In this document: positions 15,970 through 50,204 of the stretch, piece after piece
Layout of the letters: each line of letters begins with the position of its first letter
Position numbering within the stretch: position 1 is the first letter of the stretch
NCBI RefSeq assembly: GCF_021353235.1
Contig: NZ_JAJTWT010000012.1
Span: 1-64,000, forward strand
Length of the DNA: 64,000 nt
Source of the DNA: Pelomonas caseinilytica
GTDB lineage: Bacteria > Pseudomonadota > Gammaproteobacteria > Burkholderiales > Burkholderiaceae_C
Direction of reading: 5' to 3'
Made by a program: the position numbers and the translations under genes
Notes under the pieces: model-generated
What the model was told of the DNA's origin: nothing
Seen by the model: the letters and a program-made list of their open reading frames with translations, nothing else
The model's database searches: none

Positions 15970-16896
15970 TCAGGCGTCGTTGAAGAGGGGCTCGGGCAGG
16001 GCCAGGCCCGCGCCCACCGTCACGCCGAAGAGGCTGCCCGACAGCGGCCTGGACATCAGCTCGGCGCTGCTCAGGCCCGCGCGGGCACTGGTGACGAGGA
16101 GCTGGTCGCCGTTCGGGCCACCGAGGGCCGGGCAGGTGGGGTTGCTGACGGGCACGGCATGGCGGCCGAGGAAGCGGCCATCGGGCGCGTAGCGGGCCAC
16201 GGCGCCGTTGCCCCATTCGGCATTCCACAGGCAGCCCTGGGCGTCGACGATGGAGCCGTCGGGCGAGCAGCTGTCGAAGTCCTTGCGGACGAAGATGCGC
16301 GGCTCGGACACCCGGGCCGTGTCGGCGTCGTAGTCGCAGACGAGGATGCGCGGGTGCATGGTGTCGCAGTAGTACATGCGGCGCCCGTCGGGACTGAAGC
16401 AGATGCTGTTGGCGATGGCCACGCCGTCCAGCGCCAGGCGCCGCAGCCCGTGGGCGGCGGAGTACTGGTAGAAGCTGCCGATGGGCTGGCGGGGCTCGGC
16501 CTCGTCGAGCGTGCCGAAGACGAGGTTGCCGCTGCGGTCGCAGCGGCCGTCGTTGGCGCGAGTGGTGGGCAGATGGGCCTCGAGCGGCACGATCTCCTGC
16601 GGCTGCACGCTGAACTCGCCGGTGGCGCCCAGGTCGGGCAGGGTCAGCCGCGCCAGGCGCTTGGCCATGGCCAGCAGCAGGGCGCCGGAGCAGCCGTGGG
16701 CGAAGCAGCCCACGCGCTCGGGCAGGCGCAGCACCAGGGTGTCGCGGGCGCCGGGTGTCCAGGCGTGCAGGCAGCGGCCCTCGATGTCCGTCCACCACCA
16801 ACGGCCGGAGCCGGCATGCCACTGCAGGCCCTCGCCGAGGGTGGCGGCCTGGGTCAGGACGGGCGTGAGGGCGGGCAGGGCGAGGTCAGGCGTCAT
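15970..16896 (-). CDS. SMP-30/gluconolactonase family sugar lactonase (likely L-arabinonolactonase)
   Basis: It probably hydrolyses the sugar lactone made by the dehydrogenase of this operon to the open aldonic acid (L-arabonate). The 308-residue protein is a six-bladed beta-propeller. The family metal ligands are visible: Glu in TLGEGLQWH, Asn and Asp in RANDGRCDRSG with NLVFGTLDE, and Asp in CSPDGSIVDAQG. It has no signal peptide, so it is cytoplasmic. The start at 16896 overlaps the thioesterase stop by 11 bases. Specificity for L-arabinonolactone is inferred from the pathway; xylonolactone is also possible. Confidence 0.85.
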   Translation of the reverse strand: MTPDLALPALTPVLTQAATLGEGLQWHAGSGRWWWTDIEGRCLHAWTPGARDTLVLRLPERVGCFAHGCSGALLLAMAKRLARLTLPDLGATGEFSVQPQEIVPLEAHLPTTRANDGRCDRSGNLVFGTLDEAEPRQPIGSFYQYSAAHGLRRLALDGVAIANSICFSPDGRRMYYCDTMHPRILVCDYDADTARVSEPRIFVRKDFDSCSPDGSIVDAQGCLWNAEWGNGAVARYAPDGRFLGRHAVPVSNPTCPALGGPNGDQLLVTSARAGLSSAELMSRPLSGSLFGVTVGAGLALPEPLFNDA

Positions 16897-17353
16897 GGCG
16901 GGTTTCCAGGGCGGCGCGGGCTTGCTTGCGGGCCAGTGCCGCGGCGTGGCGGCGGCGTTCGTCGGGGGTGAAGGGGCGCAGCGGCGGCACCGGCACGGGC
17001 TTGTTGTCGTCCCCCACGGCCACCATCGTGAAGTAGCAGCTGTTGACGTGCCGCGTCTCTTGCGTGCGGATGTTCTGCGCCACGACCTTGATGCCCACCT
17101 CCATCGACGAGGTGCCGGTGTGGTTGACGCTCGCGAGGAAGGTGACCAGCTCGCCGACGTGCACCGGCTGGCGGAAGATGACCCGGTCCACCGACAGCGT
17201 GACCACGTAGCGCCCCGCGTACCGGCTCGCACAGGCGTAGGCCACCTGGTCGAGCAGCTTGAGGATGTTGCCGCCGTGGACGTTGCCGGCGAAGTTGGCG
17301 GTGTCCGGCGTCATCAGCACCGTCATCGTCAGTTGGTGGGCAGGCAGGTCCAT
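16886..17353 (-). CDS. Hotdog-fold acyl-CoA thioesterase
   Basis: A 155-residue single-domain YciA/BACH-type thioesterase that would hydrolyse acyl-CoA to free acid and CoA. The pattern NVHGGNILKLLDQVAYACASRYAG, with HGG and the catalytic-region aspartate, and the strand VTLSVDRVIFRQPVHVGELVTF are typical. A basic tail (RRRHAAALARKQARA) follows. It sits between the aldose epimerase (16 bases upstream) and the lactonase (11-base overlap). The tight packing shows co-transcription, but no arabinose step needs a thioesterase, so its role here is unexplained. Confidence 0.87.
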   Translation of the reverse strand: MDLPAHQLTMTVLMTPDTANFAGNVHGGNILKLLDQVAYACASRYAGRYVVTLSVDRVIFRQPVHVGELVTFLASVNHTGTSSMEVGIKVVAQNIRTQETRHVNSCYFTMVAVGDDNKPVPVPPLRPFTPDERRRHAAALARKQARAALETRHDA

Positions 17354-17369
17354 GGCGCTCGGGGTGGTG

Positions 17370-18431
17370 TCAGCTGAAGCGGTGGACTGTAGTGCTGCGC
17401 CACACCTCGCCCGGCCGCAGCACGGTGCTGGGCCAGTCCGGCCCGGCTTCGTGATGTGGCGAGTCGGGGTTGTGCTGGGTCTCCAGGCACAGGCCGTCGC
17501 CCTGGCGGTAGATGCGCCCGCCGGGGCCGACGAGGCTGCCGTCGAGGAAATTGCCGGAGTAGAACTGCAGGGCCGGCTCGGTGGTCAGCACCTGCATGCG
17601 GCGGCCGGAGGCGGGGTCTTCCAGCGTCGCGGCCAAGCGGAGGCCATCGGGGCCGGGCGGCCCGTCGAGCAGCCAGTTGTGGTCGTAGCCCTTGGCCAGC
17701 ACCAGCTGCGGATGGGCCTGGCGGATGCGCGACTCGATGACCGTGGGCTCACGGAAGTCGAAGGGCGTGCCCTCGACCGCCGCATGCCGCTGCGGGATGA
17801 GGTGGGCGTCGACCTCGCTGTAGCGCGAGGCCGCCAGCGCCAGGCGGTGGCCCAGGGCGCTGCCCTCGCCCGCGAGGTTGAAGTAGCCGTGGTGGGTGAG
17901 GTTGACGACGGTGGGCCGGTCGGTCGTGGCTTCGTAGTCGATGCGCCACTCGTTGCACCGGGCGCTCAGCGCGTAGCGCGCCTGCACCTGCAGCTCGCCG
18001 GGGAAGCCCTGCTCGCCGTCCGGGCTGGTGTAGCGCAGCACCAGCACCGCCGCTTCGCCGGGGCCGGGTTCGCCGGGCTCGGCCTGCCAGAGCCGGTGGC
18101 CGAAGCCGATGGTGCCGCCGTGCAGGCAGTTGGGGCCGTTGTTGCAGGTGAGCGGGTAGGCGTGGCCGTCGAGCTCGAAGCTGGCGCCCGCGATGCGGTT
18201 GCCGTAGCGGCCGATGAGGGCGCCGAAGAAGGGGTTGCGCTGGACGTAGTCGTCCAGGTTGTCGAAACCCAGCACCACGTTGCCGCTTTCACCGCGCGCA
18301 TCCGGCACGCACAGGCGGGTCACGATGCCGCCCAGGGTGATGGCCGTCAGCGTGAGCCCCAGACCGTTGCTCAACGTGTACTCATGCACCACCCGGCCAT
18401 CGGGCAGCTGGCCGTAGTCGCGACATTCCAT
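17370..18431 (-). CDS. Aldose 1-epimerase (mutarotase)
   Basis: It interconverts alpha and beta anomers of free sugars, here probably supplying the anomer used by the sugar dehydrogenase. It has 353 residues with the GalM family residues: histidines in CLHGGTIGFGHR and NLTHHGYFNLAG, and glutamate in LCLETQHNPDSPH. A good ribosome site (GGAGG) precedes the ATG at 18431. An in-frame ATG 15 codons upstream lies over that site and is less likely. It is 31 bases downstream of the dehydrogenase gene. Confidence 0.92.
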   Translation of the reverse strand: MECRDYGQLPDGRVVHEYTLSNGLGLTLTAITLGGIVTRLCVPDARGESGNVVLGFDNLDDYVQRNPFFGALIGRYGNRIAGASFELDGHAYPLTCNNGPNCLHGGTIGFGHRLWQAEPGEPGPGEAAVLVLRYTSPDGEQGFPGELQVQARYALSARCNEWRIDYEATTDRPTVVNLTHHGYFNLAGEGSALGHRLALAASRYSEVDAHLIPQRHAAVEGTPFDFREPTVIESRIRQAHPQLVLAKGYDHNWLLDGPPGPDGLRLAATLEDPASGRRMQVLTTEPALQFYSGNFLDGSLVGPGGRIYRQGDGLCLETQHNPDSPHHEAGPDWPSTVLRPGEVWRSTTVHRFS

Positions 18432-18462
18432 TTCTAAACCTCCAGGCTGGGTCGGCAGGGCC

Positions 18463-19230
18463 TCATGCCCAGCCACCGTCGACGACGAAGTCCTGGGCGG
18501 TGCACATGGCGCTGTCGTCCGCGGCCAGGAACAGGGCCATGGCCGCGATGTGCTGCGGCATCAGCGGGTCGGCGATGCACTGGCCCTTGGCGATCTCCTG
18601 CCGGGTCTCCTCGGTGACCCACAGCCGCAGCTGCTTCTCCGTCATCACCCAGCCCGGCACCAGCGTGTTGACGCGGATGCGGTGCGGGCCGAAGTCGCGC
18701 GCCAGGCAGCGCGTCAGGCCCTGCACGGCCGCCTTGCTGGCGGTGTAGGCCGGCATGCCGCCCTGCTTGAGCATCCACGAGATGGAGCCGAAGTTGACGA
18801 TGGAACCAAAGCCGGCGGCCTTCATGTCCGGCAGCACGGCTTGCGCCGTGAAGAACTGGTGGCGCAGGTTGACGGCCACGCTGGCGTCCCAGAACTCGGG
18901 CGTCGTCTCCTCGACGGCGTGGCGCTTGTCGTTGGCCGCGTTGTTCAGCAGCACGGTGAAGGGGCCGGTGCGCTCGCGCAGCGCGGCGATGGCGCTGCGC
19001 AGGGACTCGGCGTTCGCGAGGTCGGCCGCGACGAACTGCGGCGCATGGCGCGACGTCGCCGCCAGACGCCCGGCCAGGGCCCGCCCTTCGTCCGCGGCCA
19101 GGTCGATGAAGCCGACGCGGGCGCCCTGGGCGGCGAAGGCCTCCACCAGCGTCTCCCCGATGCCTGTGGCCCCGCCGGTGATCAGGACGGCGCGGTCCTG
19201 GAGGCTGGGATAGCGGGTGTAGGCGGTCAT
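18463..19230 (-). CDS. SDR sugar 1-dehydrogenase (likely L-arabinose 1-dehydrogenase)
   Basis: A short-chain dehydrogenase of 255 residues that would oxidise the sugar C1 to the lactone with NAD(P). The nucleotide motif TGGATGIG (about 18-25), LLNNAANDKRH, and the catalytic Ser in NFGSISW with YTASK (Tyr/Lys) are present; the C-terminus is DFVVDGGWA. The NNAANDKRH and NFGSISW stretches and the ending closely resemble Caulobacter-type D-xylose 1-dehydrogenase. L-arabinose is favoured as substrate because the neighbours make and process L-arabinose. It is the first gene of the leftward operon, reading from the shared control region. Confidence 0.85.
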   Translation of the reverse strand: MTAYTRYPSLQDRAVLITGGATGIGETLVEAFAAQGARVGFIDLAADEGRALAGRLAATSRHAPQFVAADLANAESLRSAIAALRERTGPFTVLLNNAANDKRHAVEETTPEFWDASVAVNLRHQFFTAQAVLPDMKAAGFGSIVNFGSISWMLKQGGMPAYTASKAAVQGLTRCLARDFGPHRIRVNTLVPGWVMTEKQLRLWVTEETRQEIAKGQCIADPLMPQHIAAMALFLAADDSAMCTAQDFVVDGGWA

Positions 19231-19449
19231 TCGGGGCGTCTCCGGTCGTGTGCGAGCGGCTCTGCGGCCGGCTGATGACCGGCATTATTAGTCATACTTT
19301 TTTGTTTGCAAAGCCGCCGATTCGCGGGTTAACCCCAATCATCAAGCTTAAATAGTCATACTTTAATGCGACCCATGCCGGCACCCAGAAGCCGGCCCGG
19401 TGCCAGCGATGGCGCCCGCACACCACCCTCAGAGACAAGGGACCGCCCC
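19231..19449. promoter_or_regulatory. Shared divergent promoter region with two operator repeats
   Basis: The 12-base sequence TAGTCATACTTT occurs twice in the same orientation, at 19289-19300 and 19353-19364. Its core is a small dyad (AGT-CAT-ACT). The copies are 64 bases apart, near six helical turns. On the leftward strand, TTGCAA (19311-19306) and ATAATG (19288-19283) are 17 bases apart, and copy one fills the spacer. Copy two ends in TTTAAT (19362-19367), a possible -10 for the rightward operon. The FadR-type regulator encoded at 28029-28811 is the best candidate to bind. AAGGGA precedes the rightward start. Confidence 0.7.
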
Positions 19450-20379
19450 ATGAGCCAGCCGGCCGCCCGCCCCTACCGCGGCGTCTTTCCCGTCGTGCCC
19501 ACCATCTTCAATGCCGACGGCAGCCTCGACCTGCCGGGCCAGTTGCGCTGCGTCGACTTCATGATCGACGCCGGCTCCAACGGGCTGTGCATCCTGGCGA
19601 ATTTCTCGGAGCAGTTCGTGCTGTCCGACGCCGAGCGCGAGACGCTCACGCGGGCCATGCTCGAACACGTGGCCGGCCGCGTGCCCGTCATCGTCACGAC
19701 CACGCACTACGCCACCCAGATCTGCATCGAGCGCAGCCGCCTCGCGCAGGAGCTGGGCGCGGCCATGGTGATGGTGATGCCGCCCTATCACGGCGCCACC
19801 TTCCGCGTGTCAGAGGGCCAGATCGAGGCCTTCTACCGCCGCCTGTCCGACGCCATCTCCATCCCCATCATGATCCAGGACGCCCCGGTGGCCGGCACGC
19901 CGCTGTCGGTGCCGCTGCTGGCGCGCATGGCCAACGAGATCGCCAACGTGAAGTACTTCAAGCTGGAGATGCCGCAGGCTGCCAGCAAGATGCGCGAGCT
20001 CATCCGCGTCGGCGGCGCGGCCATCGAAGGGCCCTGGGACGGCGAGGAGGCCATCACCCTGCTGGCCGACCTGGACGCCGGCGCCACGGGCGCCATGACG
20101 GGCGGCGCCTACCCCGACGGCATCCGCATGATCTTCGACGCCTTCCACCGCGGCGACCGCGAGGAGGCCGTGCGCCAGTACGGCCGCTGGCTGCCGCTGA
20201 TCAACTACGAGAACCGCCAGGGCGGCATCCTCACCGCCAAGGCGCTGATGAAGGAAGGCGGCGTCATCCGCTGCGATGCGCCGCGCCACCCCTTCCCGGA
20301 AATGAGCCCCGAAGTGCGCGCCGGCCTGCTCGACGCCGCCCGCCGACTCGACCCCCTGGTCCTGCGCTGGGGCCACTGA
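19450..20379 (+). CDS. DHDPS-family dehydratase (likely 2-keto-3-deoxy-L-arabonate dehydratase)
   Basis: A class I aldolase-fold enzyme that would dehydrate 2-keto-3-deoxy-L-arabonate to 2-ketoglutarate semialdehyde. The 309-residue TIM barrel has the Schiff-base lysine in NVKYFKLEM (probably Lys171) and a conserved tyrosine in PPYHG (Tyr113). The usual GTTGE-like loop reads GLCILANFSEQ. The ATG at 19450 is chosen because AAGGGA lies before it and the conserved fold starts soon after; the in-frame ATG at 19366 overlaps the operator. It is the first gene of the rightward operon. Assignment is from family plus pathway context. Confidence 0.85.
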   Translation: MSQPAARPYRGVFPVVPTIFNADGSLDLPGQLRCVDFMIDAGSNGLCILANFSEQFVLSDAERETLTRAMLEHVAGRVPVIVTTTHYATQICIERSRLAQELGAAMVMVMPPYHGATFRVSEGQIEAFYRRLSDAISIPIMIQDAPVAGTPLSVPLLARMANEIANVKYFKLEMPQAASKMRELIRVGGAAIEGPWDGEEAITLLADLDAGATGAMTGGAYPDGIRMIFDAFHRGDREEAVRQYGRWLPLINYENRQGGILTAKALMKEGGVIRCDAPRHPFPEMSPEVRAGLLDAARRLDPLVLRWGH

Positions 20380-21305: not shown

Positions 21306-21318
21306 ACCGGAGACCCCT

Positions 21319-22403
<1,085 letters not shown>

Positions 22404-22407
<4 letters not shown>

Positions 22408-23297
22408 GCGCCGCCCCCACCGTCGGCATCCGCGCCCCCCGCCCCGCCCACGCCCTCTTCGTCCTCCCCTTCGTCGCCATCTACGCCGTCCTGCTTCTGT
22501 GGCCGCTGGCCAAGGGCGTGTGGATCAGCTTCCACGACCACGACCTGCTGTCCAACGACAGCTTCTGGGTGGGCCTGGGCAATTACAAGGAGCTGTGGGC
22601 CGACGAAGTCTTCCACCAGGTCGTGTGGAACACCCTGCGCTTCGTCGCCATCAGCACGCCCATCTTCGTCGGCCTGTCGCTGATGCTGGCCCTGGCCCTG
22701 AACCGCCCCGGCCGCCTGGCCACGCTGCTGCGTGCCACGTTCTTCTGTGCCTCGGTGTTCTCCGTCACCCTGGTCACCCTGGTGTGGAAGCTGGCCCTCA
22801 TGCCCGAGCGCGGCCTCGTCGCCCAGGCCTTCCAGGCCCTGGGCCTGCCGGAGCTGCCGCTGCTGACGAGCGACCACCTCGCCCTGCTCACCATCGCCCT
22901 GGTCACCGTCTGGTGGATCATCGGCCTGCCGATGATCCTCTTCCTGTCGGCGCTGCAGCAGATCCCCGCCGACATCTACGAGGCCGCCGCGCTGGACCAC
23001 ACGCCCCGCTGGCGCGTGCTGACCCACATCACCCTGCCCAGCCTCAAGCGCGCCATCGTGCTGGCCACGCTGATCGAGGTCATCCGGCAGTTCCAGGTCT
23101 TCCCGCAGATCCTGCTGATGACCAACGGCGGCCCCAACAACAGCACGCGCTCCATCGTGCAGTTCATCTACGAGCAGGCCTTCATGCAGTTGTCGCTCGG
23201 CTATGCCACCGCCGCCTCGCAGGTGCTGCTGGCCATCATGCTGATCGGCGTCTCGGCCCAGCTCTGGCTTGAACGTGACCGCGGAGGCGCCCGATGA
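22404..23297 (+). CDS. CUT1 sugar ABC transporter permease 1
   Basis: A 297-residue inner-membrane subunit of the UgpA/MsmF type with about six helices. The EAA loop that contacts the ATPase reads DIYEAAALDHTPRWRVLTHI, followed by LPSLKRA. ATGA overlaps join it to the ATPase gene upstream and permease 2 downstream. Substrate is inferred from the neighbouring arabinan genes. Confidence 0.95.
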
Positions 23298-24130
23298 ACC
23301 CGCTGCTGCGCCGCGGCTGGTTCGACCGCTTCGTGATGGCGGCGCTGACGCTGCTGGCCCTGGCCTGGATCGCGCCGCTGCTGTGGGTGCTGGCGCTCTC
23401 GTTCAAGCCCAACGACTTTCTGCTGCGCCACACCGACGTCTTCCTCGCGCCCCCCTACACGCTCGCCAACTACCTCGACATCCTGCAGACCTCGCAGGTC
23501 TTTCGCTGGCTGGCCAACAGCGCCATCGTCGCGCTGCTGCAGACGGCCGGCGTGCTGGTGCTCTCGTCGCTCGCGGGCTACGGCTTCGCGCGCTGCGAGT
23601 TCCCCGGGCGCCGCTGGCTCTTCGCCCTCGTGATGTTCGGCCTGGCCGTGCCGGCGCAGTCCGTCTTCATCCCGCTGCACCGCCTGTTCTCGGACTGGAA
23701 CCTGCAGAACACCCTCGCCGGCCTGGCCCTGCCCGGCCTGGCCGCGCCCTTCGGCGTCTACCTGATGACGCAGTACTTCAAGGCCATCCCCGCGGAGCTG
23801 GAGGAGGCGGCCCTGCTGGACAACGCCTCGCGCCTCAAGACCTTCCTGCGGGTCATCCTGCCGCTGAGCCTGCCGGCGCAGGCGACGCTGGGGATCTTCA
23901 CCTTCCTGGCCTCATGGAACGACTACCTCTGGCCCCTGGTCATCGCCACCAAGCCGGAGATGTACACGCTGACCCGGGGCCTGGCGTCCACGCAGACCAA
24001 CTTCGCGCAGTCCGAGGGCCTGGGCTTCCTGATGGCGCAGGCGGTGTTCGCCGGCCTGCCGGCGCTGACGATCTACCTCTTCTTCCAGCGCCACCTCGTC
24101 ACCGCCGTCGCGGGCACCGGCAAGTCATGA
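23294..24130 (+). CDS. CUT1 sugar ABC transporter permease 2
   Basis: The second membrane subunit (278 residues, UgpE/MsmG type). The EAA loop reads AELEEAALLDNASRLKTFLR and then VILPLSLPAQA. The first helix is at about 12-36. It overlaps both neighbours by 4 bases. Confidence 0.95.
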   Translation: MNPLLRRGWFDRFVMAALTLLALAWIAPLLWVLALSFKPNDFLLRHTDVFLAPPYTLANYLDILQTSQVFRWLANSAIVALLQTAGVLVLSSLAGYGFARCEFPGRRWLFALVMFGLAVPAQSVFIPLHRLFSDWNLQNTLAGLALPGLAAPFGVYLMTQYFKAIPAELEEAALLDNASRLKTFLRVILPLSLPAQATLGIFTFLASWNDYLWPLVIATKPEMYTLTRGLASTQTNFAQSEGLGFLMAQAVFAGLPALTIYLFFQRHLVTAVAGTGKS

Positions 24131-27928: not shown

Positions 27929-27933
27929 ACGCC

Positions 27934-28029
27934 ATGCGTCTGCTGCCTTGCCTCCTCCTCGCCCTGCCCGCCCTCGCCGCCATGCTGGCGCTGGCACCAG
28001 GCGGCGGCTTCGTCGCCCGCTTTCGATAA
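27934..28029 (+). CDS. Possible 31-residue hydrophobic peptide, coupled to regulator gene
   Basis: The frame MRLLPCLLLALPALAAMLAL... reads like a bare signal or membrane peptide. Its stop overlaps the regulator start as TAATG. No good ribosome site is seen. It may be a small membrane protein, a leader peptide setting regulator translation, or the remnant of a lost exported enzyme. Coding status is uncertain. Confidence 0.3.
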   Translation: MRLLPCLLLALPALAAMLALAPGGGFVARFR

Positions 28030-28811: not shown

Positions 28812-28858
28812 GCATGACCGCCCCGACGACGCACGCCGCAGCGCATTGAAAGACCGCC

Positions 28859-31484: not shown

Positions 31485-31522
31485 GCCCCGGGGCGCGCGG
31501 GCCATAAGAAGCCGCGAGCGAT

Positions 31523-31825: not shown

Positions 31826-31904
31826 GGCTGAGGCGGGGAGGCGCTCGATTGTCCCGTGACGCCGCGGCAACGCGCGCGGGCTCCGCTGATGCAAACTCCA
31901 TCGG

Positions 31905-35043: not shown

Positions 35044-35319
35044 ATGCCCGACTACTTCAACACCTACGTCGACGAGGACCAGCTGCTCGTCTACCAGGGG
35101 GCGGACTTCGACGAGGTCTGCCTGACGGATGCCTCGGGGGAGCTCGGTGCGCAGGTCTGGTGCTGGACGCGCCGCGAGGCGGACCGGGCCAAGGCCAGCT
35201 GGCTGCGGCTCATCGTCAAGGTCGACGACAGGGATGCCGCCTCGGCCGTCGAGCGCGTCAGGGGCGCGCTCAAGCCCCAGCCGGTGGCCGACCCGAACCG
35301 CCCGCTCTGGGCGCACTGA
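35044..35319 (+). CDS. Small hypothetical protein
   Basis: A 91-residue soluble protein (MPDYFNTYVDEDQLLVYQG...) with acidic N-terminal and basic middle parts. It has no signal peptide and no family I recognise. It ends 12 bases before the 3' end of the convergent GH43 gene, which bounds cluster B on its left. Confidence 0.65.
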   Translation: MPDYFNTYVDEDQLLVYQGADFDEVCLTDASGELGAQVWCWTRREADRAKASWLRLIVKVDDRDAASAVERVRGALKPQPVADPNRPLWAH

Positions 35320-39825: not shown

Positions 39826-39922
39826 GAGTGAGTTCTCGTTGTCGCGAGAGTGCGGTGCCGGGAGTTCGCCCCGGCGGGTGACCGGCTGGGCCCGGCCACA
39901 ACCCCATTCCAACGAACCACGG

Positions 39923-43284: not shown

Positions 43285-43286
43285 CG

Positions 43287-44831
43287 TCAGCTGCTCAGGC
43301 GCACGGCCCACAACGAGACGCCGGTCGCCGCGGCCGTGCTGGCGGTCGACGAGATCACGCTGAAGCTCACGACGAAGGCGCTGGAGTTGGCATTCCACTG
43401 GCGGGACAGTACGCCCCTGTAGGTCACGCCACCGCTCACGAGGGTGATGCGGTTGCTGCCGTCGTGCGTCCACGTGCCGGTCATGCCGCCCGCGCCGCCG
43501 ATGCTGCCGTCGTTGTTGAGCGTCACGACGATGGAGCCCTTGCTCGTCGCCGTGATGTCCTTGCCGTGGTTGACCAGCTTGTAGGTGCCGGCCGCCTGCG
43601 CCGCGCTGACGTCGGCCGTCTGCGCCGGGCTGGCCAGGCTGAGCGGCGCGTAGCGCAGCGCGGCGACGACGGGCCAGCCGTCCGCGTTGAAATGCATCTC
43701 GTGCACGCGGATCTCGTGAAGCTCGCCCGTGCCCGGGAAGCGGGTGTGGAAGATGATGAAGTACTGGCCCGTCGTCGCGTCGTAGTAGGCCGAGTTGTGG
43801 CCCGGCGACACGTAGCCCAGGGCCGTGCCGGTCTCGAACGCGGCGTTGGCGTACTGGTGGCCGCCCATCAGCTTCATCCCGAAGTTCTGGATGCTGGGGC
43901 GGTCGAAGGGGGCGCTGGCCCTGACGGTGGCCATGTCGGTGCCGAAGCCGTCCAGGTAGGGGCCGTCCGGCGCGAGCGAGCGGCAGACGCGGACGTTGTA
44001 GCCGCCGGCCGCGGCCAGGCCGCCCCACGACGTGAACATGTAGTAGTACTGGGTCGCCGGGTTGTAGATGACGTAGGCGCCCTCGATCTCGGCGTGGTTG
44101 CCGCCCAGCAGGTGCTTGCCGTAGCCCTGGCCGGGGATGGGCAGGCCCGTCGCCGGGTCCAGCTGCAGGATGTAGATGCCGCCGGAGTAGGAGCCGTAGA
44201 TCATCCACAGCTTGCCCGTCGCGTCCTTGAACACGGCGGGGTCGACCACGTTGGGGTGCCGGGTCGCGTCGTAGGGGGTGCCGTCCTCGGACGTACCCAC
44301 CATGCCGGACTTCAGCACGATCTGCTTGTTCGCATAGGGGCCGTCGACGCTGCCGGCGACGGCCACGCCCAGGGCCGACAGCGGCGAGCTGCCCTGGCAG
44401 GAACAGTAGTACATGTAGAACTTGCCGTCGTCGAGCCTGGCGACGTCGGGCGCCCACAGGTCCGTCACCGTCGTCCATGCGAAGGTGGCGGCGAGTTCGG
44501 TCGTGACCTTGTTGCCGAACAGCGGATTGCCGTTGTCGACACCGTCGGCCAGCTTGGTCCAGTTCATCAGGTCCGTCGTCCTGGCCGCCGCGAGGTGGGA
44601 GCCGAAAACGTAGAACGAGCCGTTGACGCGGATGACCGACGGGTCATGGACCGACGCGTTGCCGAAGCTCAGCGCGGCCTGGACGGCATTGGGGTTGGCC
44701 GGCGTGGGCGCGGGCGCGGGTGTCGAAGGCGCGGGGGCGGGCGCAGAGCTCCCACCGCCACCGCCGCCGCAGGCGGTCAGGGCGAGGGCGGCAGAGCCGG
44801 CGAGGAAGTCGCGGCGGTTGTGCAAGGCCAT
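43287..44831 (-). CDS. Tat-exported lipoprotein GH43 endo-arabinanase
   Basis: A 514-residue enzyme. The N-terminus MALHNRRDFLAGSAALALTACGGGGGG has a Tat-like RRDFL motif followed by a lipobox (LTAC, Cys21) and a Gly/Ser/Pro-Ala linker, so it is probably folded before export and lipid-anchored. The GH43 domain (about 50-390) has SVHDPSVIRV, VVDPAVFKDATG and EIEGAYVIYN for the carboxylates and GYVSPGHNSAYYD for the metal-site His. A C-terminal small beta-barrel (about 415-514), as in Bacillus Abn2-type arabinanases, follows. It likely cuts the alpha-1,5-arabinan chain at the cell surface or in the periplasm. Confidence 0.9.
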   Translation of the reverse strand: MALHNRRDFLAGSAALALTACGGGGGGSSAPAPAPSTPAPAPTPANPNAVQAALSFGNASVHDPSVIRVNGSFYVFGSHLAAARTTDLMNWTKLADGVDNGNPLFGNKVTTELAATFAWTTVTDLWAPDVARLDDGKFYMYYCSCQGSSPLSALGVAVAGSVDGPYANKQIVLKSGMVGTSEDGTPYDATRHPNVVDPAVFKDATGKLWMIYGSYSGGIYILQLDPATGLPIPGQGYGKHLLGGNHAEIEGAYVIYNPATQYYYMFTSWGGLAAAGGYNVRVCRSLAPDGPYLDGFGTDMATVRASAPFDRPSIQNFGMKLMGGHQYANAAFETGTALGYVSPGHNSAYYDATTGQYFIIFHTRFPGTGELHEIRVHEMHFNADGWPVVAALRYAPLSLASPAQTADVSAAQAAGTYKLVNHGKDITATSKGSIVVTLNNDGSIGGAGGMTGTWTHDGSNRITLVSGGVTYRGVLSRQWNANSSAFVVSFSVISSTASTAAATGVSLWAVRLSS

Positions 44832-45030
44832 GGTGATGTCTCCGGGTGTGCTTGTTGTGGCCGGCGGAGCCTAGGAGGCTGCGCGGCTGTGCACCAATGA
44901 CATTGCAGGCGCTGTCGATCCTGGTTTTGATATGCCGTGTGGATGCCGCGAACGCAGCGCAACGCCTGGGCGAGCAGCATGGCTGGCGCAGGCGTTGCGG
45001 TTCGCGGAACGTGCTCGTCGAGAGGGCGGG
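44832..45030. promoter_or_regulatory. Spacer upstream of endo-arabinanase gene
   Basis: The 199-base gap between GH51 and the lipoprotein GH43. It holds a perfect short dyad CAATG-A-CATTG (about 44895-44905) that could be a regulator site. It probably contains the promoter of the leftward GH43-GH127-ytfQRT-yjfF-GH43 operon; GAGACATC-type sequence near the ATG is a weak ribosome site. No terminator with a T-tract was found after the GH51 gene. Confidence 0.4.
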
Positions 45031-46572
45031 TCAGCCCTCGACGGCGACGACGACGATGGACTTGGCCGGCAGCTTCAGCGTCAGCTTGCCGCCGGCAGCC
45101 CGGGCTTCATAGGGCTGCGGCAGGACCTGCGGCGCCTTGCCGAGCTCGTTCTGTGCGTCCATCGCGCCGGCGGTCAGCAGCTGGCCCTTGACCGCCTTGG
45201 GCGCGCCGGCGCCGACCTGCAGCGTCAGCTCGGCGGGCTGGTTCGCATTCGAGTTCACGAGGCCGACGTAGAGCTTGCCGTCCTTGCCGCGCGCGGCAGT
45301 GGCGGACAGGCCCGGCATCTCGACCGCGCCGACCTTGTAGACCGGGTTGTTCTCGATCTTGGCCGGCAGGGAGGTGGCGTCCTGGAAGGGCGTGTAGAGC
45401 TTGAAGGCGTGGTAGGTCGGCGTCAGCACGAGCTTGTCCTTGCTCGTCTGGATCATGGCCTGCAGCACGTTGACCATCTGCGCGATATTGGTCATCTGCA
45501 CCCGGTCGGCGTGGGCGTGGAAGACGTTGAAGTGCAGGGCCGCCAGCAGGGCGTCGCGCAGCGTGTTGCGCTGGACCAGGAAGCCGGGGTTGCTGCCGGG
45601 GTCCGGGTCGTACCAGCTGCCCCACTCGTCGAAGTAGAAGCCGATCTTCTTCGCCGGGTCGTTCTTGTCGAGGACGGCCGTGTTCCTGGTGATGATCTCG
45701 TCGATGTTCTTGACGTTGGCCAGCGTCGAGATCCACTCGCTCTCCGGGAAGCCGACGGCCGCGCCCTTGTGCTCCCACTGGCCCGTGGGTAGGGTGTAGG
45801 AGTGGTGGGAGATGGCGTTGACGCTGTGCACGCCCTTGCTGAGCACCTCGGTCCACTCCGTCTGCAGGCCGTTGCCGCCGCTGGCGATGAAGATGGGGCG
45901 GTTGTTGCCGGGCGTCTTCAGGAAGCTCGCGACCTGGCGGTACTGGTCGGCGTAGTACTCGGGGCGCATGTTGCCGCCGCAGCCCCAGGCCTCGTTGCCG
46001 ACGGCGAAGTAGTGCACGCGGAAGGGCTTGTCGCGGCCGTTCTTGCGTCGTAAGTCGGTCAGCGTGGACTTGCCTTCGCCGGTCATGTACTCCAGCCACT
46101 CCGACATCTCCTGCGCGCTGCCGGTGCCGAGGTTGCCGTTCACATAGGCTTCGGCGCCGATCTGCTCGACGAGGTCGAAGAACTCGTGCGTGCCGACGGC
46201 GTTGTCCTCGGGCACGCCGCCCCAGTTGGTGTTGATCTTGATCGGGCGCTTGTCGCGCGGGCCGATGCCGTCGCGCCAGTGGTATTCATCGGCGAAGCAG
46301 CCGCCGGGCCAGCGCACCAGCGGCACCTTGAGGTCCTTGAGAGCCGCCACCACGTCCTTGCGCCAGCCGCGCACGTTGGGGATCTTGGAGTCGGGGCCGA
46401 CCCACATGCCTTCGTAGATGCCGGTGCCGAGGTGTTCGGCGAACTGGCCGTAGACGTTGCGGTGGATGACGGGGCCGGGCTGGTCGGCGTTGACGACCAG
46501 CTTGGTATCCGCCGCCACGGCGCTCGCGCCGACGGCCAGCGTGGCGACGAGGGCCAACAGTTGTTTCTTCAT
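45031..46572 (-). CDS. Exported GH51 alpha-L-arabinofuranosidase
   Basis: A 513-residue GH51 enzyme with a signal peptide (MKKQLLALVATLAVGASAVAA). The acid/base is Glu194 in FAVGNEAWGCGG and the nucleophile is Glu316 in FYFDEWGSWY. It is divergent from the cytoplasmic GH51 of cluster A, so the organism has one copy on each side of the inner membrane. It should release alpha-L-arabinofuranose from substrates in the periplasm or outside. The gene follows the semialdehyde dehydrogenase gene with a repeat-containing 179-base gap. Confidence 0.93.
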   Translation of the reverse strand: MKKQLLALVATLAVGASAVAADTKLVVNADQPGPVIHRNVYGQFAEHLGTGIYEGMWVGPDSKIPNVRGWRKDVVAALKDLKVPLVRWPGGCFADEYHWRDGIGPRDKRPIKINTNWGGVPEDNAVGTHEFFDLVEQIGAEAYVNGNLGTGSAQEMSEWLEYMTGEGKSTLTDLRRKNGRDKPFRVHYFAVGNEAWGCGGNMRPEYYADQYRQVASFLKTPGNNRPIFIASGGNGLQTEWTEVLSKGVHSVNAISHHSYTLPTGQWEHKGAAVGFPESEWISTLANVKNIDEIITRNTAVLDKNDPAKKIGFYFDEWGSWYDPDPGSNPGFLVQRNTLRDALLAALHFNVFHAHADRVQMTNIAQMVNVLQAMIQTSKDKLVLTPTYHAFKLYTPFQDATSLPAKIENNPVYKVGAVEMPGLSATAARGKDGKLYVGLVNSNANQPAELTLQVGAGAPKAVKGQLLTAGAMDAQNELGKAPQVLPQPYEARAAGGKLTLKLPAKSIVVVAVEG

Positions 46573-46751: not shown

Positions 46752-48338
46752 TCAGTTCCGGGTCAACGCGCCATCGCGGCGGCGCCAGACGCCGCGCTCG
46801 TTGGGTTCGCGCAGCACGGGCGGCAGCAGCGCGCGCGGCAGGTTCTGGTAGCAGACCGGGCGCAGGAAGCGCTGGATGGCGGCCGTGCCGACCGAGCTGC
46901 TGCGGCCGTCGCTGGTGGCCGGGAAGGGGCCGCCGTGGACCATGGCGGTGGACACCTCCACGCCCGTCGGGAAGCCGTTGGCGAGGATGCGGCCCACCTT
47001 GCGCTCCAGCGTCGGCAGCAGGCGGCGGGCGGCGGCGAGGTCGGCCTCGTCCTCGTCCTGCAGCTGCAGCGTGGCGGTGAGCTGGCCTTCCAGGCCTTCG
47101 AGCACCGCCAGCAGTTCGTCGAGGTCGCGGCAGGCCACCAGCAGCGAGGCGGGGCCGAAGATCTCCGCCGACATCGCGTGGTTGGCCAGGAAGGCGGCAC
47201 CGGTGGTGCGGAACAGGCTGGGCGCACCCTGGCAGCCGCCGGATTCGCCGCGCAGCAGGGCCTCGACGCCCGGTTGGCCGGCGAGCTGCTCTTCGCCGCG
47301 CTGGTAGGCGCCGGCGATGCCGGGCGTCAGCATGGTGCCGGCAGCCACAGGCTTGAGGGCCTCGGCCGCGGCCTGGGCGAAGCGGTCGAGATCAGGCCCG
47401 GCCAGGCCGAGCACCAGGCCGGGGTTGGTGCAGAACTGGCCCACGCCCATCGTCAACGAGGCGGCGAAGCCCGTCGCGATATCGGCCCCGCGGGCGGTGA
47501 GGGCGCCGGGCAGCAGGACGACGGGGTTGATGCTGCTCATCTCGGCATAGACGGGGATGGGCTGGGGGCGGGCCGCCGCCGCGGCCATCAGCGCCAGGCC
47601 GCCGCTGCGCGAGCCGGTGAAGCCGACAGCCTGGATGGCGGGGTGGCGCACCAGGGTGTCGCCGATGCCGTGGCCGCTGCCCGTCAGCAGCGCGAAGACG
47701 CCGGCCGGCAGGCCGCACTGGCGCACGGCCTCCACCACCGCTCGACCGACGAGTTCGGACGTGCCCGGATGGGCCGAGTGGGCCTTGACGACGACCGGGC
47801 AGCCGGCGGCGAGCGCCGCGGCGGTGTCGCCACCGGCGACCGAGAAGGCGAGCGGGAAATTGCTGGCCCCGAAGACGGCCACGGGGCCGACGCCCACGAA
47901 GCGCAGTCGCAGGTCCGGCCGCGGCGGCGTGCGCGTGGGCAGGGCGGTGTCGATGCGGGCGTCCTGCCAGCTGCCTTCGCGCAGCAGCTCGGCGAAGAGC
48001 TTGAGCTGGTTGACGGTGCGGCCACGCTCGCCTTCCAGCCGTGCGCGCGGCAGGCCGGTCTCGGCCATGGCGCGCTCGACGAGGGCATCGCCCAGGGCGA
48101 GGATCTGCGCGGCGACCTGGTCCAGGAAATCGGCGCGCTCGTGGTCGCTGGTGGCGCGGTAGGCGTCGAAGGCGGCACCGGCCAGGACGCAGGCCTCGGC
48201 GACCTGGGCCGCATCGACGGCGTGGAAATCGGGGCCGATGGCCTCGTTCCTGCCGGGATCGAAGGCCTGGAAGGGCTTGCCGTTGCCGCGGACGGGCTGG
48301 CCGCCGATCAGGGAGAGGCCTTGAATGTTGTTGCTCAT
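46752..48338 (-). CDS. 2-ketoglutarate semialdehyde dehydrogenase
   Basis: It oxidises 2-ketoglutarate semialdehyde (2,5-dioxopentanoate) to 2-ketoglutarate, the last step of non-phosphorylating arabinose breakdown. The 528-residue aldehyde dehydrogenase has catalytic Cys303 in VGQFCTNPG, general base Glu266 in VYAEMSSINP, and the SNFPLAFSVAGGDTAAALAAGCPVVVKAH core with cofactor lysine. It resembles the type III KGSADH enzymes. Start: ATG at 48338 begins MSNNIQGLSLIGG; an in-frame ATG upstream lies near the repeat. It is flanked on both sides by CACAGAG-type inverted repeats. Confidence 0.9.
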   Translation of the reverse strand: MSNNIQGLSLIGGQPVRGNGKPFQAFDPGRNEAIGPDFHAVDAAQVAEACVLAGAAFDAYRATSDHERADFLDQVAAQILALGDALVERAMAETGLPRARLEGERGRTVNQLKLFAELLREGSWQDARIDTALPTRTPPRPDLRLRFVGVGPVAVFGASNFPLAFSVAGGDTAAALAAGCPVVVKAHSAHPGTSELVGRAVVEAVRQCGLPAGVFALLTGSGHGIGDTLVRHPAIQAVGFTGSRSGGLALMAAAAARPQPIPVYAEMSSINPVVLLPGALTARGADIATGFAASLTMGVGQFCTNPGLVLGLAGPDLDRFAQAAAEALKPVAAGTMLTPGIAGAYQRGEEQLAGQPGVEALLRGESGGCQGAPSLFRTTGAAFLANHAMSAEIFGPASLLVACRDLDELLAVLEGLEGQLTATLQLQDEDEADLAAARRLLPTLERKVGRILANGFPTGVEVSTAMVHGGPFPATSDGRSSSVGTAAIQRFLRPVCYQNLPRALLPPVLREPNERGVWRRRDGALTRN

Positions 48339-48364
48339 GTCTGTTTTCGGGACGATGAAATACG

Positions 48365-48432
48365 GCCACAGAGGCACAGAGACACAGAGGCAGAGGGATG
48401 ACGGTCTCTCTGTGTCTCTGTGCCTCTGTGGC
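48365..48432. repeat. Perfect 25-bp inverted repeat between pathway genes
   Basis: The arm 48365-48389 (GCCACAGAGGCACAGAGACA...) is exactly complementary to 48408-48432, with an 18-base loop. It lies between the arabonate dehydratase stop (48450) and the semialdehyde dehydrogenase start (48338). There is no T-run. The stem could protect or process the operon message. A second, imperfect copy is at 46632-46740. Confidence 0.85.
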
Positions 48433-48449
48433 TTTGTTTGGATTCCATT

Positions 48450-50204
48450 TCAGTGAGAGTGACGTGGCACGGCCGCGCCGCGCTTGCCGCGCAGGAAGTC
48501 GAAGTCGCAGCCCTCGTCGGCCTGCAGCACGTGCTGCACGTAGAGCTGGCGATAGCCGCTCGCGTCGGCGGGGTCGGTGGTCTGGGCGGCGGCCCAGGCT
48601 TCGAGGCGGGCCTTGAGCTCGTCCTCGGAGACGTCCAGGTGCAGGCGGCCGGCCGCGCAGTCCAGCTCGATGAAGTCGCCTTCCTTGACGACCGCCAGCG
48701 GGCCGCCCGCCCGCGCCTCCGGCGCCACGTGCAGCACCACCGTGCCGTAGGCCGTGCCGCTCATGCGCGCGTCGGAGATGCGCACCATGTCCTTCACGCC
48801 CGCGGCCAGCAGCTTGGGCGGCAGGCCCATGTTGCCGACCTCGGCCATGCCGGGATAGCCCTTGGGGCCGCAGTTCTTCATGACGAGGATGGAGCTGGCG
48901 TCGACGTCGAGGTCGGGGTCGCCGATGCGGGCCTTGTAGTCCTCGAAGTCCTCGAAGACGACGGCGCGTCCGCGGTGGGTCATCAACTCGGGCGTGGCCG
49001 CCGAAGGCTTGAGCACGGCGCCGCGCGGCGCGAGGTTGCCGCGCAGGATGCAGATGCCGCCGTCGGCGATCAGCGGGTTGTCGAGCTTGCGGATGACCTC
49101 GTCGTCGTAGATGGGCGCGTCATGGCAGTTGGCCCACAGGCTCTTGCCGTTGACGGTGAGGGCATCCTTGTGCGGTAGCAGGCCGGCCTCGCCGAGGCGG
49201 CGCAGCACGGCCGGCAGGCCGCCGGCGTAATAGAACTCCTCCATCAAGAAGCGGCCCGAGGGCAGCAGGTCCACGAGCGTCGGCGTGCCGCGGCCGATGC
49301 GGGTCCAGTCCTCCAGCTCCAGGTCGACACCGATGCGGCCGGCGATGGCCTTGAGGTGGATGACGGCGTTGGTGGAGCCGCCGATGGCGGCGTTGACGCG
49401 GATGGCGTTCTCGAAGGCCTCGCGGGTCAGCACCTTGGACAGCGTCAGCTGCTCCCAGACCATCTCGACGATGCGCATGCCGGAGAGGTGGGCCAGCACA
49501 TAACGGCGCGCATCGACGGCAGGGATGGCGGCGTTGTGCGGCAGCGAGGTGCCCAGGGCCTCGGCCATGCAGGCCATGGTGGAGGCCGTGCCCATGGTGT
49601 TGCAGGTGCCGGCCGAACGCGAGTGGCCGGCCTCGGCGGCCATGAAGTCGTGCATGCTGATCTCGCCGGCCTTGACCTGCTCGTGCAGCTGCCACACGGC
49701 CGTGCCCGAGCCGATGTCCTTGCCCTTGAGCTTGCCGTTGAGCATCGGGCCGCCGGTGACGACGATGGCCGGCACGTCGCAGCTCGCCGCGCCCATCAGC
49801 AGGGCGGGCGTGGTCTTGTCGCAGCCCACCAGCAGCACGACGGCGTCCATCGGGTTGCCGCGGATGCTCTCCTCGACGTCCATGCTGGCGAGGTTGCGCG
49901 TGAGCATGGCGGTCGGGCGCAGGTTGCTCTCGCCGTTGGAGAACACCGGGAACTCGACCGGGAAGCCGCCTGCCTCCAGGATGCCGCGCTTGACGTGTTC
50001 GGCCAGCTTGCGGAAGTGGGCGTTGCAGGGCGTCAGCTCGCTCCAGGTGTTGCAGATGCCGATGATGGGCTTGCCCTGGAACTCGTGGTCGGGGATGCCC
50101 TGGTTCTTCATCCAGGAGCGGTACATGAAGCCGTTCTTGTCCTGCGTGCCGAACCACTCGGCCGAGCGCAGCCTCACCTTGCTCTTCTTGTCCTCAGTCG
50201 TCAT
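48450..50204 (-). CDS. L-arabonate dehydratase (IlvD/Edd family)
   Basis: It converts L-arabonate to 2-keto-3-deoxy-L-arabonate using an iron-sulfur cluster. It has 584 residues. The cluster cysteines align with the Rhizobium L-arabinonate dehydratase pattern: Cys60 (ELTPC), Cys128 (LLVGCDKTTPA) and Cys201 (AGTCNTMGTA); Lys129 is the expected metal-site lysine. The C-terminus YVQHVLQADEGCDFDFLRG is typical of this subgroup and distinguishes it from IlvD. It precedes the semialdehyde dehydrogenase gene by 111 bases, so two consecutive-pathway enzymes share an operon. Confidence 0.92.
   Translation of the reverse strand: MTTEDKKSKVRLRSAEWFGTQDKNGFMYRSWMKNQGIPDHEFQGKPIIGICNTWSELTPCNAHFRKLAEHVKRGILEAGGFPVEFPVFSNGESNLRPTAMLTRNLASMDVEESIRGNPMDAVVLLVGCDKTTPALLMGAASCDVPAIVVTGGPMLNGKLKGKDIGSGTAVWQLHEQVKAGEISMHDFMAAEAGHSRSAGTCNTMGTASTMACMAEALGTSLPHNAAIPAVDARRYVLAHLSGMRIVEMVWEQLTLSKVLTREAFENAIRVNAAIGGSTNAVIHLKAIAGRIGVDLELEDWTRIGRGTPTLVDLLPSGRFLMEEFYYAGGLPAVLRRLGEAGLLPHKDALTVNGKSLWANCHDAPIYDDEVIRKLDNPLIADGGICILRGNLAPRGAVLKPSAATPELMTHRGRAVVFEDFEDYKARIGDPDLDVDASSILVMKNCGPKGYPGMAEVGNMGLPPKLLAAGVKDMVRISDARMSGTAYGTVVLHVAPEARAGGPLAVVKEGDFIELDCAAGRLHLDVSEDELKARLEAWAAAQTTDPADASGYRQLYVQHVLQADEGCDFDFLRGKRGAAVPRHSH

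What the first reader, a model, noticed from the sequence alone, without database searches (positions are those of the whole stretch)
15970..50204. Complete non-phosphorylating L-arabinose pathway split over two distant clusters
Dehydrogenase, lactonase and 2-keto-3-deoxyarabonate dehydratase are in cluster A (15970-20379). Arabonate dehydratase and 2-ketoglutarate semialdehyde dehydrogenase are in cluster B (46752-50204), about 27-30 kb away. Neither cluster alone encodes the route. No araBAD (isomerase/kinase/epimerase) genes are in the window. Two importers and seven GH43/GH51/GH127 family hydrolases accompany it. The split raises the question whether one signal controls both.
Basis: partly seen in the sequence, partly recalled or inferred. 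Interest (0 to 1): 0.75.

Follow-up and report, generated by a model that had tools for sequence, protein, structure and literature searches.

The report
Arabinose oxidation locus with two switches
A Roseateles-type bacterium carries the long-known route that oxidises the plant sugar L-arabinose to 2-oxoglutarate in two neighbouring gene blocks that appear to answer to two different regulators, one of which is encoded in the block that it does not itself seem to switch.

Summary
All five enzyme classes of the non-phosphorylating L-arabinose pathway are present; the DHDPS-type enzyme carries the three residues that mark L-2-keto-3-deoxyarabonate dehydratase. No L-arabinose isomerase gene was found in the genome. 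The pathway is not new: relatives are Roseateles/Pelomonas, and R. saccharophilus (formerly Pseudomonas saccharophila) is where it was first described.

The 'two distant clusters' are two arms of one locus. They abut in Mitsuaria and R. depolymerans; here about 5.5 kb lie between. In 14 of 15 same-genus genomes with both dehydratase genes these sit in separate modules.

On 'does one signal control both?', sequence points to two regulators. Arm A's divergent promoter holds two AGTnnnACT sites 64 bp apart, a GntR/FCD-type form that co-occurs with the GntR gene across genera. Arm B has the site of a LysR regulator: a motif learnt from 14 promoters of other genomes has its three best window hits upstream of arm B's IlvD, TonB and GH43 genes. 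That LysR gene lies at the end of arm A. Arabonate dehydratase seems to have changed regulator. No binding or expression was tested.

The parts
15970..16896 (-). SMP-30/SGL-family lactonase (predicted L-arabinonolactonase)
   Evidence: Pfam PF08450; distant PDB matches 2ghs, 7plb
16886..17353 (-). 4HBT hot-dog thioesterase, role in the pathway unknown; 92-96% identical in the 13 of 15 other genus arm A regions that show it
17370..18431 (-). aldose 1-epimerase (GalM-like)
18463..19230 (-). SDR dehydrogenase, predicted L-arabinose 1-dehydrogenase
19289..19298 (+). predicted GntR operator 1 (TAGTCATACT), between -35-like and -10-like hexamers of the SDR operon
19326..19335 (.). conserved palindrome GGGTTAACCC between the two operators, role unknown
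19353..19362 (+). predicted GntR operator 2 (TAGTCATACT), 64 bp from operator 1, on the KdaD side
19450..20379 (+). L-2-keto-3-deoxyarabonate dehydratase (KdaD)
   Evidence: Gln143, Lys171, Glu173 present (alignment, residue roles from PMC9795676)
20379..21305 (+). GH43 hydrolase
21319..25464 (+). ABC importer: UgpC/MalK-type ATPase, two permeases, solute-binding protein
25464..26987 (+). GH51-type arabinofuranosidase (ArfA model, above the NCBIfam cut-off)
26984..27928 (+). GH43 hydrolase
   Evidence: longer ORF 26951-27928
27934..28029 (+). 31-codon ORF, apparent remnant of a GH97 gene; its stop overlaps a possible GntR start (TAATG)
28059..28811 (+). GntR-family regulator with FCD domain (possible earlier start at 28029); predicted repressor of the SDR|KdaD promoter
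28859..29839 (+). LysR-family regulator (LysR1); predicted regulator of arm B
35332..36288 (-). GH43 hydrolase
36315..40882 (-). YtfQ/YtfR (Gaf)-type ABC importer: two permeases, ATPase, binding protein (predicted L-arabinofuranose importer)
40909..43284 (-). GH127 hydrolase
   Evidence: longer ORF 40909-44478
43287..44831 (-). GH43 hydrolase
44884..44933 (-). third-ranked LysR1-type site (8.3 bits), upstream of the GH43 gene 43287-44831
45031..46572 (-). GH51-type arabinofuranosidase
46752..48338 (-). aldehyde dehydrogenase, predicted 2-oxoglutarate semialdehyde dehydrogenase
48450..50204 (-). IlvD/Edd-family dehydratase, predicted L-arabinonate dehydratase
50266..50315 (-). best LysR1-type site (36.5 bits) upstream of IlvD
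50315..51268 (-). GH43 hydrolase
51357..54236 (-). TonB-dependent receptor
54346..54395 (-). second-ranked LysR1-type site (14.7 bits) upstream of the TonB receptor
54456..55367 (-). LysR-family regulator (LysR2); seen beside arm B in 3 of 14 other genus genomes (not all stretches reach far enough)

Best explanation
One arabinan/L-arabinose locus of two convergent arms. Eight hydrolases, a TonB receptor and two ABC importers supply arabinose; an SDR dehydrogenase and an SGL lactonase make L-arabonate, an IlvD-type dehydratase makes 2-keto-3-deoxy-L-arabonate, the DHDPS-type KdaD makes 2-oxoglutarate semialdehyde and an aldehyde dehydrogenase makes 2-oxoglutarate (enzyme identities by homology and context; activities not shown). 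Arm A (SDR, lactonase, KdaD, importer 1, hydrolases, and the GntR and LysR1 genes) is predicted to be held by the GntR/FCD regulator at two AGTnnnACT operators 64 bp apart. Arm B (arabonate dehydratase, semialdehyde dehydrogenase, importer 2, TonB receptor, hydrolases) is predicted to be driven by LysR1. Because LysR1 is the last gene of the arm A gene run, opening arm A should also raise the activator of arm B (inference). The inducers are unknown; pathway sugar acids such as L-arabonate or 2-keto-3-deoxy-L-arabonate are my guess.
For: Enzymes; KdaD residues Gln143, Lys171 and Glu173 present (alignment; roles from PMC9795676). No isomerase route. Modules: 14 of 15 same-genus genomes with both dehydratases keep them in separate modules. 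GntR: exact TAGTCATACT occurs as a pair, 62-64 bp apart, at the arm A promoter in 13 of 16 genomes (once in two, none in one) and in 0 of 9 separately fetched arm B regions; 3 copies in the 6-Mb genome; of 80 KdaD loci of named records, a pair is found in 13 of 16 with a GntR gene and 10 of 64 without one in reach; GT-N3-AC is the typical FadR-subfamily spacing (PMC4494728). LysR1: a motif learnt from 14 LysR1-upstream regions of other genomes, no window sequence included, has its three best window hits upstream of IlvD, TonB and GH43, likewise at widths 40, 50 and 60 and without the four f8 genomes; 0 of 20 control motif sets put the IlvD or TonB site in their top three; the IlvD site is found in 14 of 14 other genus genomes with module B. 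The LysR1 proteins nearest outside the Roseateles clade (79%, 73%) lie beside GH127-importer clusters like arm B.
Against: No binding, expression or growth data. Control motif sets reached top window scores of 14.7-27.1 bits, so the second and third LysR1 sites rest on position, not on score; 1 of 100 shuffles and 8 of 100 permuted motifs reached 8.3 bits. A second LysR gene (LysR2) adjoins the TonB promoter and could act there. Two LysR1-linked clusters, L190 (-32.4) and L197 (-10.4), show no site directly upstream of IlvD; in both, importer genes lie between LysR1 and IlvD. L197 has the contig of G017, which the tool calls same-genus and whose LysR1 upstream region was in the training set. 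L181 scores 12.5 upstream of IlvD with no LysR1 in its short stretch, and L216 and L217 (IlvDs of the 65% type) score 24.6 and 41.6, so the site may serve other genes too. Two arm A regions, G010A (10.5 and 7.1 bits) and G018A (5.1), have weak LysR1-like scores at SDR|KdaD. Three loci with a GntR gene (L136, L152, L192) lack the strict pair. rows share ancestry, so its P value is not a true probability.
Confidence: 0.68

Rival explanations
1. One regulator and one signal control both arms; the sequence differences between the promoters are lineage noise.
For: Both regulator genes sit together at the end of arm A, so one inducer could reach both arms through the cascade.
Against: The exact AGT-type site is absent from all 9 separately fetched arm B regions; LysR1 sites are found upstream of IlvD in 14 of 14 genus genomes and above 5 bits in only 2 of 15 arm A regions; five GntR-linked clusters with IlvD and no LysR1 in reach score -4.6 to 0.8 for the LysR1 site.
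Confidence: 0.15
2. LysR2 (54456-55367), next to the TonB promoter, controls arm B, and LysR1 controls something else.
For: LysR2 is adjacent and in the same direction; LysR regulators often act next to their own gene (recalled).
Against: LysR2 was seen beside arm B in 3 of 14 other genus genomes (G001, G013, G018); five stretches that reach at least 3.5 kb beyond the arm lack it (G002, G007, G009, G011, G012), and six reach under 2 kb and cannot tell, while the site upstream of IlvD is in all 14. The motif was learnt from LysR1 neighbourhoods.
Confidence: 0.12
3. The enzymes serve another sugar (D-galactose, D-fucose, D-xylose) and arabinose is incidental.
For: SDR aldose dehydrogenases can be broad; the H. 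huttiense L-arabinose enzyme also takes D-galactose, with a kcat/Km 2.9-fold lower (PMC6336799, section 11). The window IlvD scores 847.7 against the NCBIfam L-arabinonate dehydratase cut-off of 882.
Against: Characterised L-type KdaDs prefer the L-isomer at least 45-fold (PMC7374468 passage) and the window enzyme carries the diagnostic residues; eight arabinan/arabinofuranoside-type hydrolases and a Gaf-type importer adjoin; IlvDs 81-86% identical sit beside KdaD in other genera.
Confidence: 0.08
4. The other IlvD at C1:776121-777824 is the true L-arabonate dehydratase and the window IlvD acts elsewhere.
For: It exceeds the NCBIfam L-arabinonate dehydratase cut-off (1045.6 over 882), which the window IlvD misses.
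Against: It is less like the solved L-arabinonate dehydratase 5j83 than the window enzyme is (582 against 838 bits), sits with glucarate and xylulokinase genes, and G014 and G019, which lack a close KdaD, still have an IlvD at the same 49% level.
Confidence: 0.07

Closest known systems
Non-phosphorylating L-arabinose pathway of Pseudomonas saccharophila, now Roseateles saccharophilus (Weimberg and Doudoroff 1955; Stoolmiller and Abeles 1966; both seen only as citations in passages of PMC5703739 and PMC7374468)
   Same: Same reactions, same genus; the R. saccharophilus DSM 654 record (L129) has a KdaD 93% identical to the window's
   Different: PMC7374468 (passage) says that no protein sequence is available for the 1966 enzyme; the genes, the two-arm layout and the predicted regulators are what the sequence adds
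Azospirillum brasilense L-arabinose pathway
   Same: KdaD and IlvD dehydratases of the same families
   Different: The dehydrogenase here is SDR, not Gfo/Idh/MocA (PMC9795676 passage); the semialdehyde dehydrogenase is nearer 3v4c/1eyy than the A. brasilense enzyme 5x5t
Herbaspirillum huttiense and Paraburkholderia mimosarum L-arabinose clusters (PMC6336799; passages and sections 5 and 11 read)
   Same: SDR L-arabinose 1-dehydrogenase and IlvD-type L-arabinonate dehydratase, with biochemical proof in H. huttiense
   Different: The word LysR does not occur in its main text; no GntR/LysR division is described in the parts read
GafABCD L-arabinofuranose importer of Shewanella sp. ANA-3 (PMC10191376; abstract and section 15 read)
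   Same: Arm B importer has a YtfQ-type binding protein and YtfR-type ATPase; such importers often adjoin arabinan/arabinose genes
   Different: Ligand not tested here. Its Fig. 1 legend names AraJ/R-like regulated promoters from RegPrecise, which I could not consult
FadR-subfamily (FCD) GntR regulators (PMC4494728; passages read)
   Same: FCD domain; GT-N3-AC palindrome; paired sites in a divergent promoter
   Different: No named NCBIfam member fits: all 21 matches lie below their cut-offs

Membership tests
Non-phosphorylating L-arabinose pathway, 2-oxoglutarate branch | L-2-keto-3-deoxyarabonate dehydratase with Lys171, Gln143 in place of the aldolase tyrosine, and Glu173 | tested here: met
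   Gapless alignment to 3fkk; residue roles from PMC9795676
Non-phosphorylating L-arabinose pathway, 2-oxoglutarate branch | IlvD/Edd-family L-arabinonate dehydratase | tested here: inconclusive
   Family met; close to 5j83 and 9evv but best hit is 8ej0; below the NCBIfam PRK13016 cut-off; substrate not testable by sequence
Non-phosphorylating L-arabinose pathway, 2-oxoglutarate branch | L-arabinose 1-dehydrogenase | tested here: inconclusive
   SDR, near 4lvu and 7wwx; substrate not testable by sequence
Non-phosphorylating L-arabinose pathway, 2-oxoglutarate branch | Lactonase | tested here: inconclusive
   SGL family above cut-off; only distant characterised relatives
Non-phosphorylating L-arabinose pathway, 2-oxoglutarate branch | 2-oxoglutarate semialdehyde dehydrogenase | tested here: inconclusive
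   ALDH family met; none of the 25 NCBIfam matches shown reaches its cut-off; nearest solved chains 3v4c and 1eyy
Non-phosphorylating L-arabinose pathway, 2-oxoglutarate branch | No isomerase/kinase route in the genome | tested here: met
   araA 0 matches, ribulokinase below cut-off
FCD-type GntR repressor with its operator | GntR helix-turn-helix plus FCD domain | tested here: met
FCD-type GntR repressor with its operator | GT-N3-AC palindrome at the target promoter | tested here: met
   consensus
FCD-type GntR repressor with its operator | Binding and release by an inducer | not testable with these tools
   needs gel shift or footprint
LysR-type regulator with its site | HTH_1 and LysR substrate domains | tested here: met
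LysR-type regulator with its site | Conserved site shared by LysR1-adjacent promoters elsewhere and by arm B | tested here: met
LysR-type regulator with its site | Activation of arm B in the cell | not testable with these tools
   needs deletion and RNA measurement

The most novel reading that the evidence does not exclude
The pathway has been cut across its middle and rewired: in the Roseateles clade L-arabonate dehydratase (step 3) and the final dehydrogenase (step 5) are under a LysR-type activator, while steps 1, 2 and 4 stayed with GntR; the activator's gene moved into the GntR-controlled gene run, so that one arm works as the gate for the other. Compact GntR-type clusters (Ideonella, Variovorax) and LysR1-type clusters (Rhodoferax, Polaromonas, G042) survive as the two parental layouts.
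Probability: 0.45. Interest if true: 0.55.

Novelty: new variant of a known kind. Interest (0 to 1): 0.45.

Why it matters
It points to the genes behind the classic Pseudomonas saccharophila arabinose pathway, whose dehydratase was purified in 1966 and for which a 2020 paper says no protein sequence is available (PMC7374468 passage). It also gives a natural series (compact GntR-type, compact LysR-type, two-arm hybrid) in which one enzyme gene carries a different regulator's site in different genera, so regulatory rewiring of a catabolic pathway can be tested directly.

Tried and rejected
Rfam: no match. First guesses of ORF frames with no Pfam match were dropped in favour of codon-position gene calls. 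A single shared motif for both arms was looked for and not found. The palindrome GGGTTAACCC of arm A is conserved; its only other window match, with one mismatch, is at 5881, not in arm B. IlvD tree: the genus IlvDs fall on the side of the LysR1-linked and Acidovorax IlvDs, apart from the GntR-linked ones (92/57 support), but one clade with the GntR-linked ones is not rejected (p-AU 0.108), while one clade with the two f8 genomes is (p-AU 0.013); so relocation versus replacement of IlvD stays open. A third TAGTCATACT in the genome (C3:1348) has no called gene within 2 kb in the 6 kb fetched and was set aside. That the gap before GntR in relatives might hold a semialdehyde dehydrogenase was tested: in eight genus genomes it holds a long ORF (631-666 aa), of which the one scanned is GH97. 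Literature: the listings of ten searches showed no paper on these two regulators of the oxidative arabinose pathway in Roseateles; the library holds open-licence papers only, one search listed 12 of 1,653 papers, and RegPrecise, where such sites may be catalogued, could not be consulted. Limits of the genome searches: only the best few candidates per genome were scored for LysR1 (5) and GntR (6), so their counts are lower bounds.


Full report
What was checked. The window is contig 4, bases 1-64000, of a 5.98-Mb genome. Its relatives are Roseateles and Pelomonas: named records with the nearest KdaD include Pelomonas sp. Root405, R. saccharophilus DSM 654, R. puraquae and P. aquatica. Genes were called by codon-position composition and named by Pfam, NCBIfam and PDB sequence searches.

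The pathway. Arm A holds a lactonase, an aldose 1-epimerase, an SDR dehydrogenase and, divergently, the DHDPS-type enzyme. The last aligns without gaps to A. brasilense L-2-keto-3-deoxyarabonate dehydratase (3fkk; 480 bits). The three residues that PMC9795676 (passages) gives as its marks, Lys171, Gln143 in place of the aldolase tyrosine, and Glu173, are all present. Arm B holds the IlvD/Edd dehydratase (838 bits to 5j83, L-arabinonate dehydratase; 850 to 8ej0) and an aldehyde dehydrogenase. L-arabinose isomerase is absent from the genome. The sub-cut-off ribulokinase matches are other FGGY kinases; the one scanned further is a xylulokinase. The SDR, lactonase and aldehyde dehydrogenase assignments rest on family and context.

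The pathway is old news in this genus. NCBI taxonomy lists Pseudomonas saccharophila as Roseateles saccharophilus. PMC5703739 (passages) credits Weimberg's papers with L-arabinose oxidation in that species, and PMC7374468 (passages) says that the dehydratase characterised in 1966 has no protein sequence available. The R. saccharophilus DSM 654 KdaD is 93% identical to the window's. That it is the 1966 enzyme is an inference.

One locus, two arms. Arm A runs outward from the SDR|KdaD promoter; its plus-strand genes KdaD to LysR1 (19450-29839) are nearly gapless, and the only terminator-like match on that strand inside the run is at 21536-21552, within a gene and no more than chance gives. Arm B runs on the minus strand from 54236 to 35332. 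Between them lie 30093-35319: a protein without Pfam match, a YdeI/OmdA-type protein, an FAD monooxygenase and a small ORF. In Mitsuaria sp. PDC51 and R. depolymerans the LysR1 match of arm A ends 40 and 148 bp from the first arm B match. So the split is an interruption of one locus.

Across the genus. KdaD at 74% identity or more is in 16 of 19 same-genus genomes and the window-type IlvD (85% or more) in 15 of 19. In 14 of the 15 with both, the two sit in separate modules: on one contig 27-143 kb apart in seven, on different contigs in seven. In G002 and G012 arm B lies on the other side of arm A, beyond yidC-mnmE. Only G017 has IlvD and KdaD side by side.

Arm A's promoter. Aligned over 16 genomes, the SDR|KdaD region has two blocks with the same core TAGTCATACT. 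Exact copies occur as a pair in 13 of 16, singly in two (G007, G013), not at all in G010; spacing is 64 bp (62 in G018). A promoter scan places the first copy between TTTGCA and AATAAT of an SDR promoter. The core is the palindrome AGT-N3-ACT. PMC4494728 (passages) gives GT-N3-AC as the usual FadR-subfamily form, and arm A encodes such a GntR/FCD protein. In other genera the pair stands before IlvD or KdaD where a GntR orthologue is present (L142; L145 Ideonella; L153 Sphaerotilus MAG; L166; L167 Variovorax), with single or variant sites in L152 and L192. Counted over all 80 loci: pair in 13 of 16 with GntR (L136, L152 and L192 lack it), in 10 of 64 without. Those ten end before the expected GntR position or just in it: L130, L132 and L135 have the contig lengths of G002, G015 and G009, whose longer stretches show GntR; L139 shows it in a longer stretch; L127 and L138 show it cut at the end; L128, L137, L141 and L202 were not resolved.

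Arm B's promoters. Upstream of IlvD and of the TonB gene lies a different conserved block. LysR1 orthologues in 12 other genomes of a 399-genome order sample, with G017 and G035 added, gave 14 upstream regions; G017 is called same-genus by the tool but has a compact cluster and a LysR1 only 56% identical. An expectation-maximisation motif learnt from these 14 scores the window highest at 50266-50315 (36.5 bits, IlvD), 54346-54395 (14.7, TonB) and 44884-44933 (8.3, GH43), all on the minus strand in arm B; the next hit is -5.6. Of 100 dinucleotide shuffles one reached 8.3 and none 14.7; of 100 column-permuted motifs eight reached 8.3 and none 14.7. The same three sites lead at widths 40, 50 and 60 and without the four f8 genomes. 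Twenty control motif sets from other low-GC pieces of the same loci gave top window scores of 14.7-27.1 bits but never put the IlvD or TonB site among their best three: score alone is therefore no proof, position is. The IlvD site is present in 14 of 14 other genus genomes with module B (29.9-43.7 bits). Of 15 other arm A regions only G018 (5.1) and G010 (10.5, 7.1) exceed 5 bits.

A change of regulator. The IlvD upstream regions of eight further Roseateles-clade genomes (L206-L213) all have LysR1 sites (16.0-57.3 bits) and no AGTnnnACT pair, whereas L214 (Ideonella) and L215 (Variovorax) have the pair and no LysR1 site. Two more distant IlvDs, L216 and L217, also score 24.6 and 41.6. Five GntR-linked IlvDs score between -4.6 and 0.8; LysR1-linked L173, L183 and L191 score 39.5-57.6, but L190 and L197 do not score; of the 16 IlvD loci with neither regulator in reach, mostly Acidovorax, all but L181 (12.5) lie at -14 or below. 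The LysR1 tree places the Roseateles-clade LysR1 beside G362 and G091 (100/98), where LysR1 adjoins a GH127-importer cluster like arm B. In L140, L145 and L194 a different semialdehyde-dehydrogenase-like ALDH follows KdaD; the window's genome has its nearest relative (72%) in the glucarate cluster instead. Whether IlvD itself moved or was replaced is unresolved.

How it probably works. GntR sits on two operators and closes both halves of arm A; a sugar acid releases it. The arm A run then makes KdaD, an importer, hydrolases and LysR1. LysR1, with its own ligand, opens arm B, which brings arabonate dehydratase, semialdehyde dehydrogenase, a Gaf-type importer and the TonB receptor. Shown: gene families, conservation and placement of the sites. 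Inferred: which protein binds which site, the sign of regulation, co-transcription and the ligands.

Standing. As a pathway this is already known in this genus; for the two-arm, two-regulator layout the listings of ten literature searches showed no description (open-licence papers only, RegPrecise not consulted).

Noticed in passing
27934-28029: A 31-codon ORF keeps a signal-peptide-like start and the last residues (GGFVARFR) of a 631-aa GH97 hydrolase that several relatives have here; G007 and G013 keep different short ORFs ending in VARFR. The GH97 stop overlaps a possible GntR start (TAATG), which may be why the end survives.
   Followed up: partly
G042 locus L077, about 11034-12208: In G042 the roughly 1.2 kb between IlvD and the aldehyde dehydrogenase shows no KdaD match, and that genome's best KdaD match is weak and elsewhere (E 2e-18): possibly an unrelated 2-keto-3-deoxy-L-arabonate dehydratase.
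   Followed up: no
16886-17353: A hot-dog thioesterase inside the arabinose operon is more conserved across the genus (92-96%) than the lactonase, epimerase and SDR beside it; no role in the pathway is evident.
   Followed up: no
G000:C1:764000-796000 (L224, L225): A second sugar-acid cluster: xylulokinase, GH43, an IlvD above the NCBIfam L-arabinonate dehydratase cut-off, RraA-like and ROK proteins, KdgD, glucarate dehydratase, a KGSADH-like ALDH and a sugar-acid transporter.
   Followed up: partly
12254-13316: HTH_17 and PIN-domain proteins side by side, a possible toxin-antitoxin pair next to mnmE.
   Followed up: no
1982-12117: The locus lies beside gyrB, dnaA, yidC and mnmE; in G002 and G012 arm B is on the far side of yidC-mnmE, which suggests rearrangement near the replication origin.
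   Followed up: no
51357-54236: At the head of arm B the TonB receptor match is only 31% identical in G005, G009 and G012: apparent exchange of the outer-membrane receptor within a conserved arm.
   Followed up: no
L074 (G010): G010 has degenerate arm A operators, a fast-evolving LysR1 and weak LysR1-like scores at its SDR|KdaD promoter; it may have changed arm A's regulator, but the assembly is poor (83% complete).
   Followed up: no
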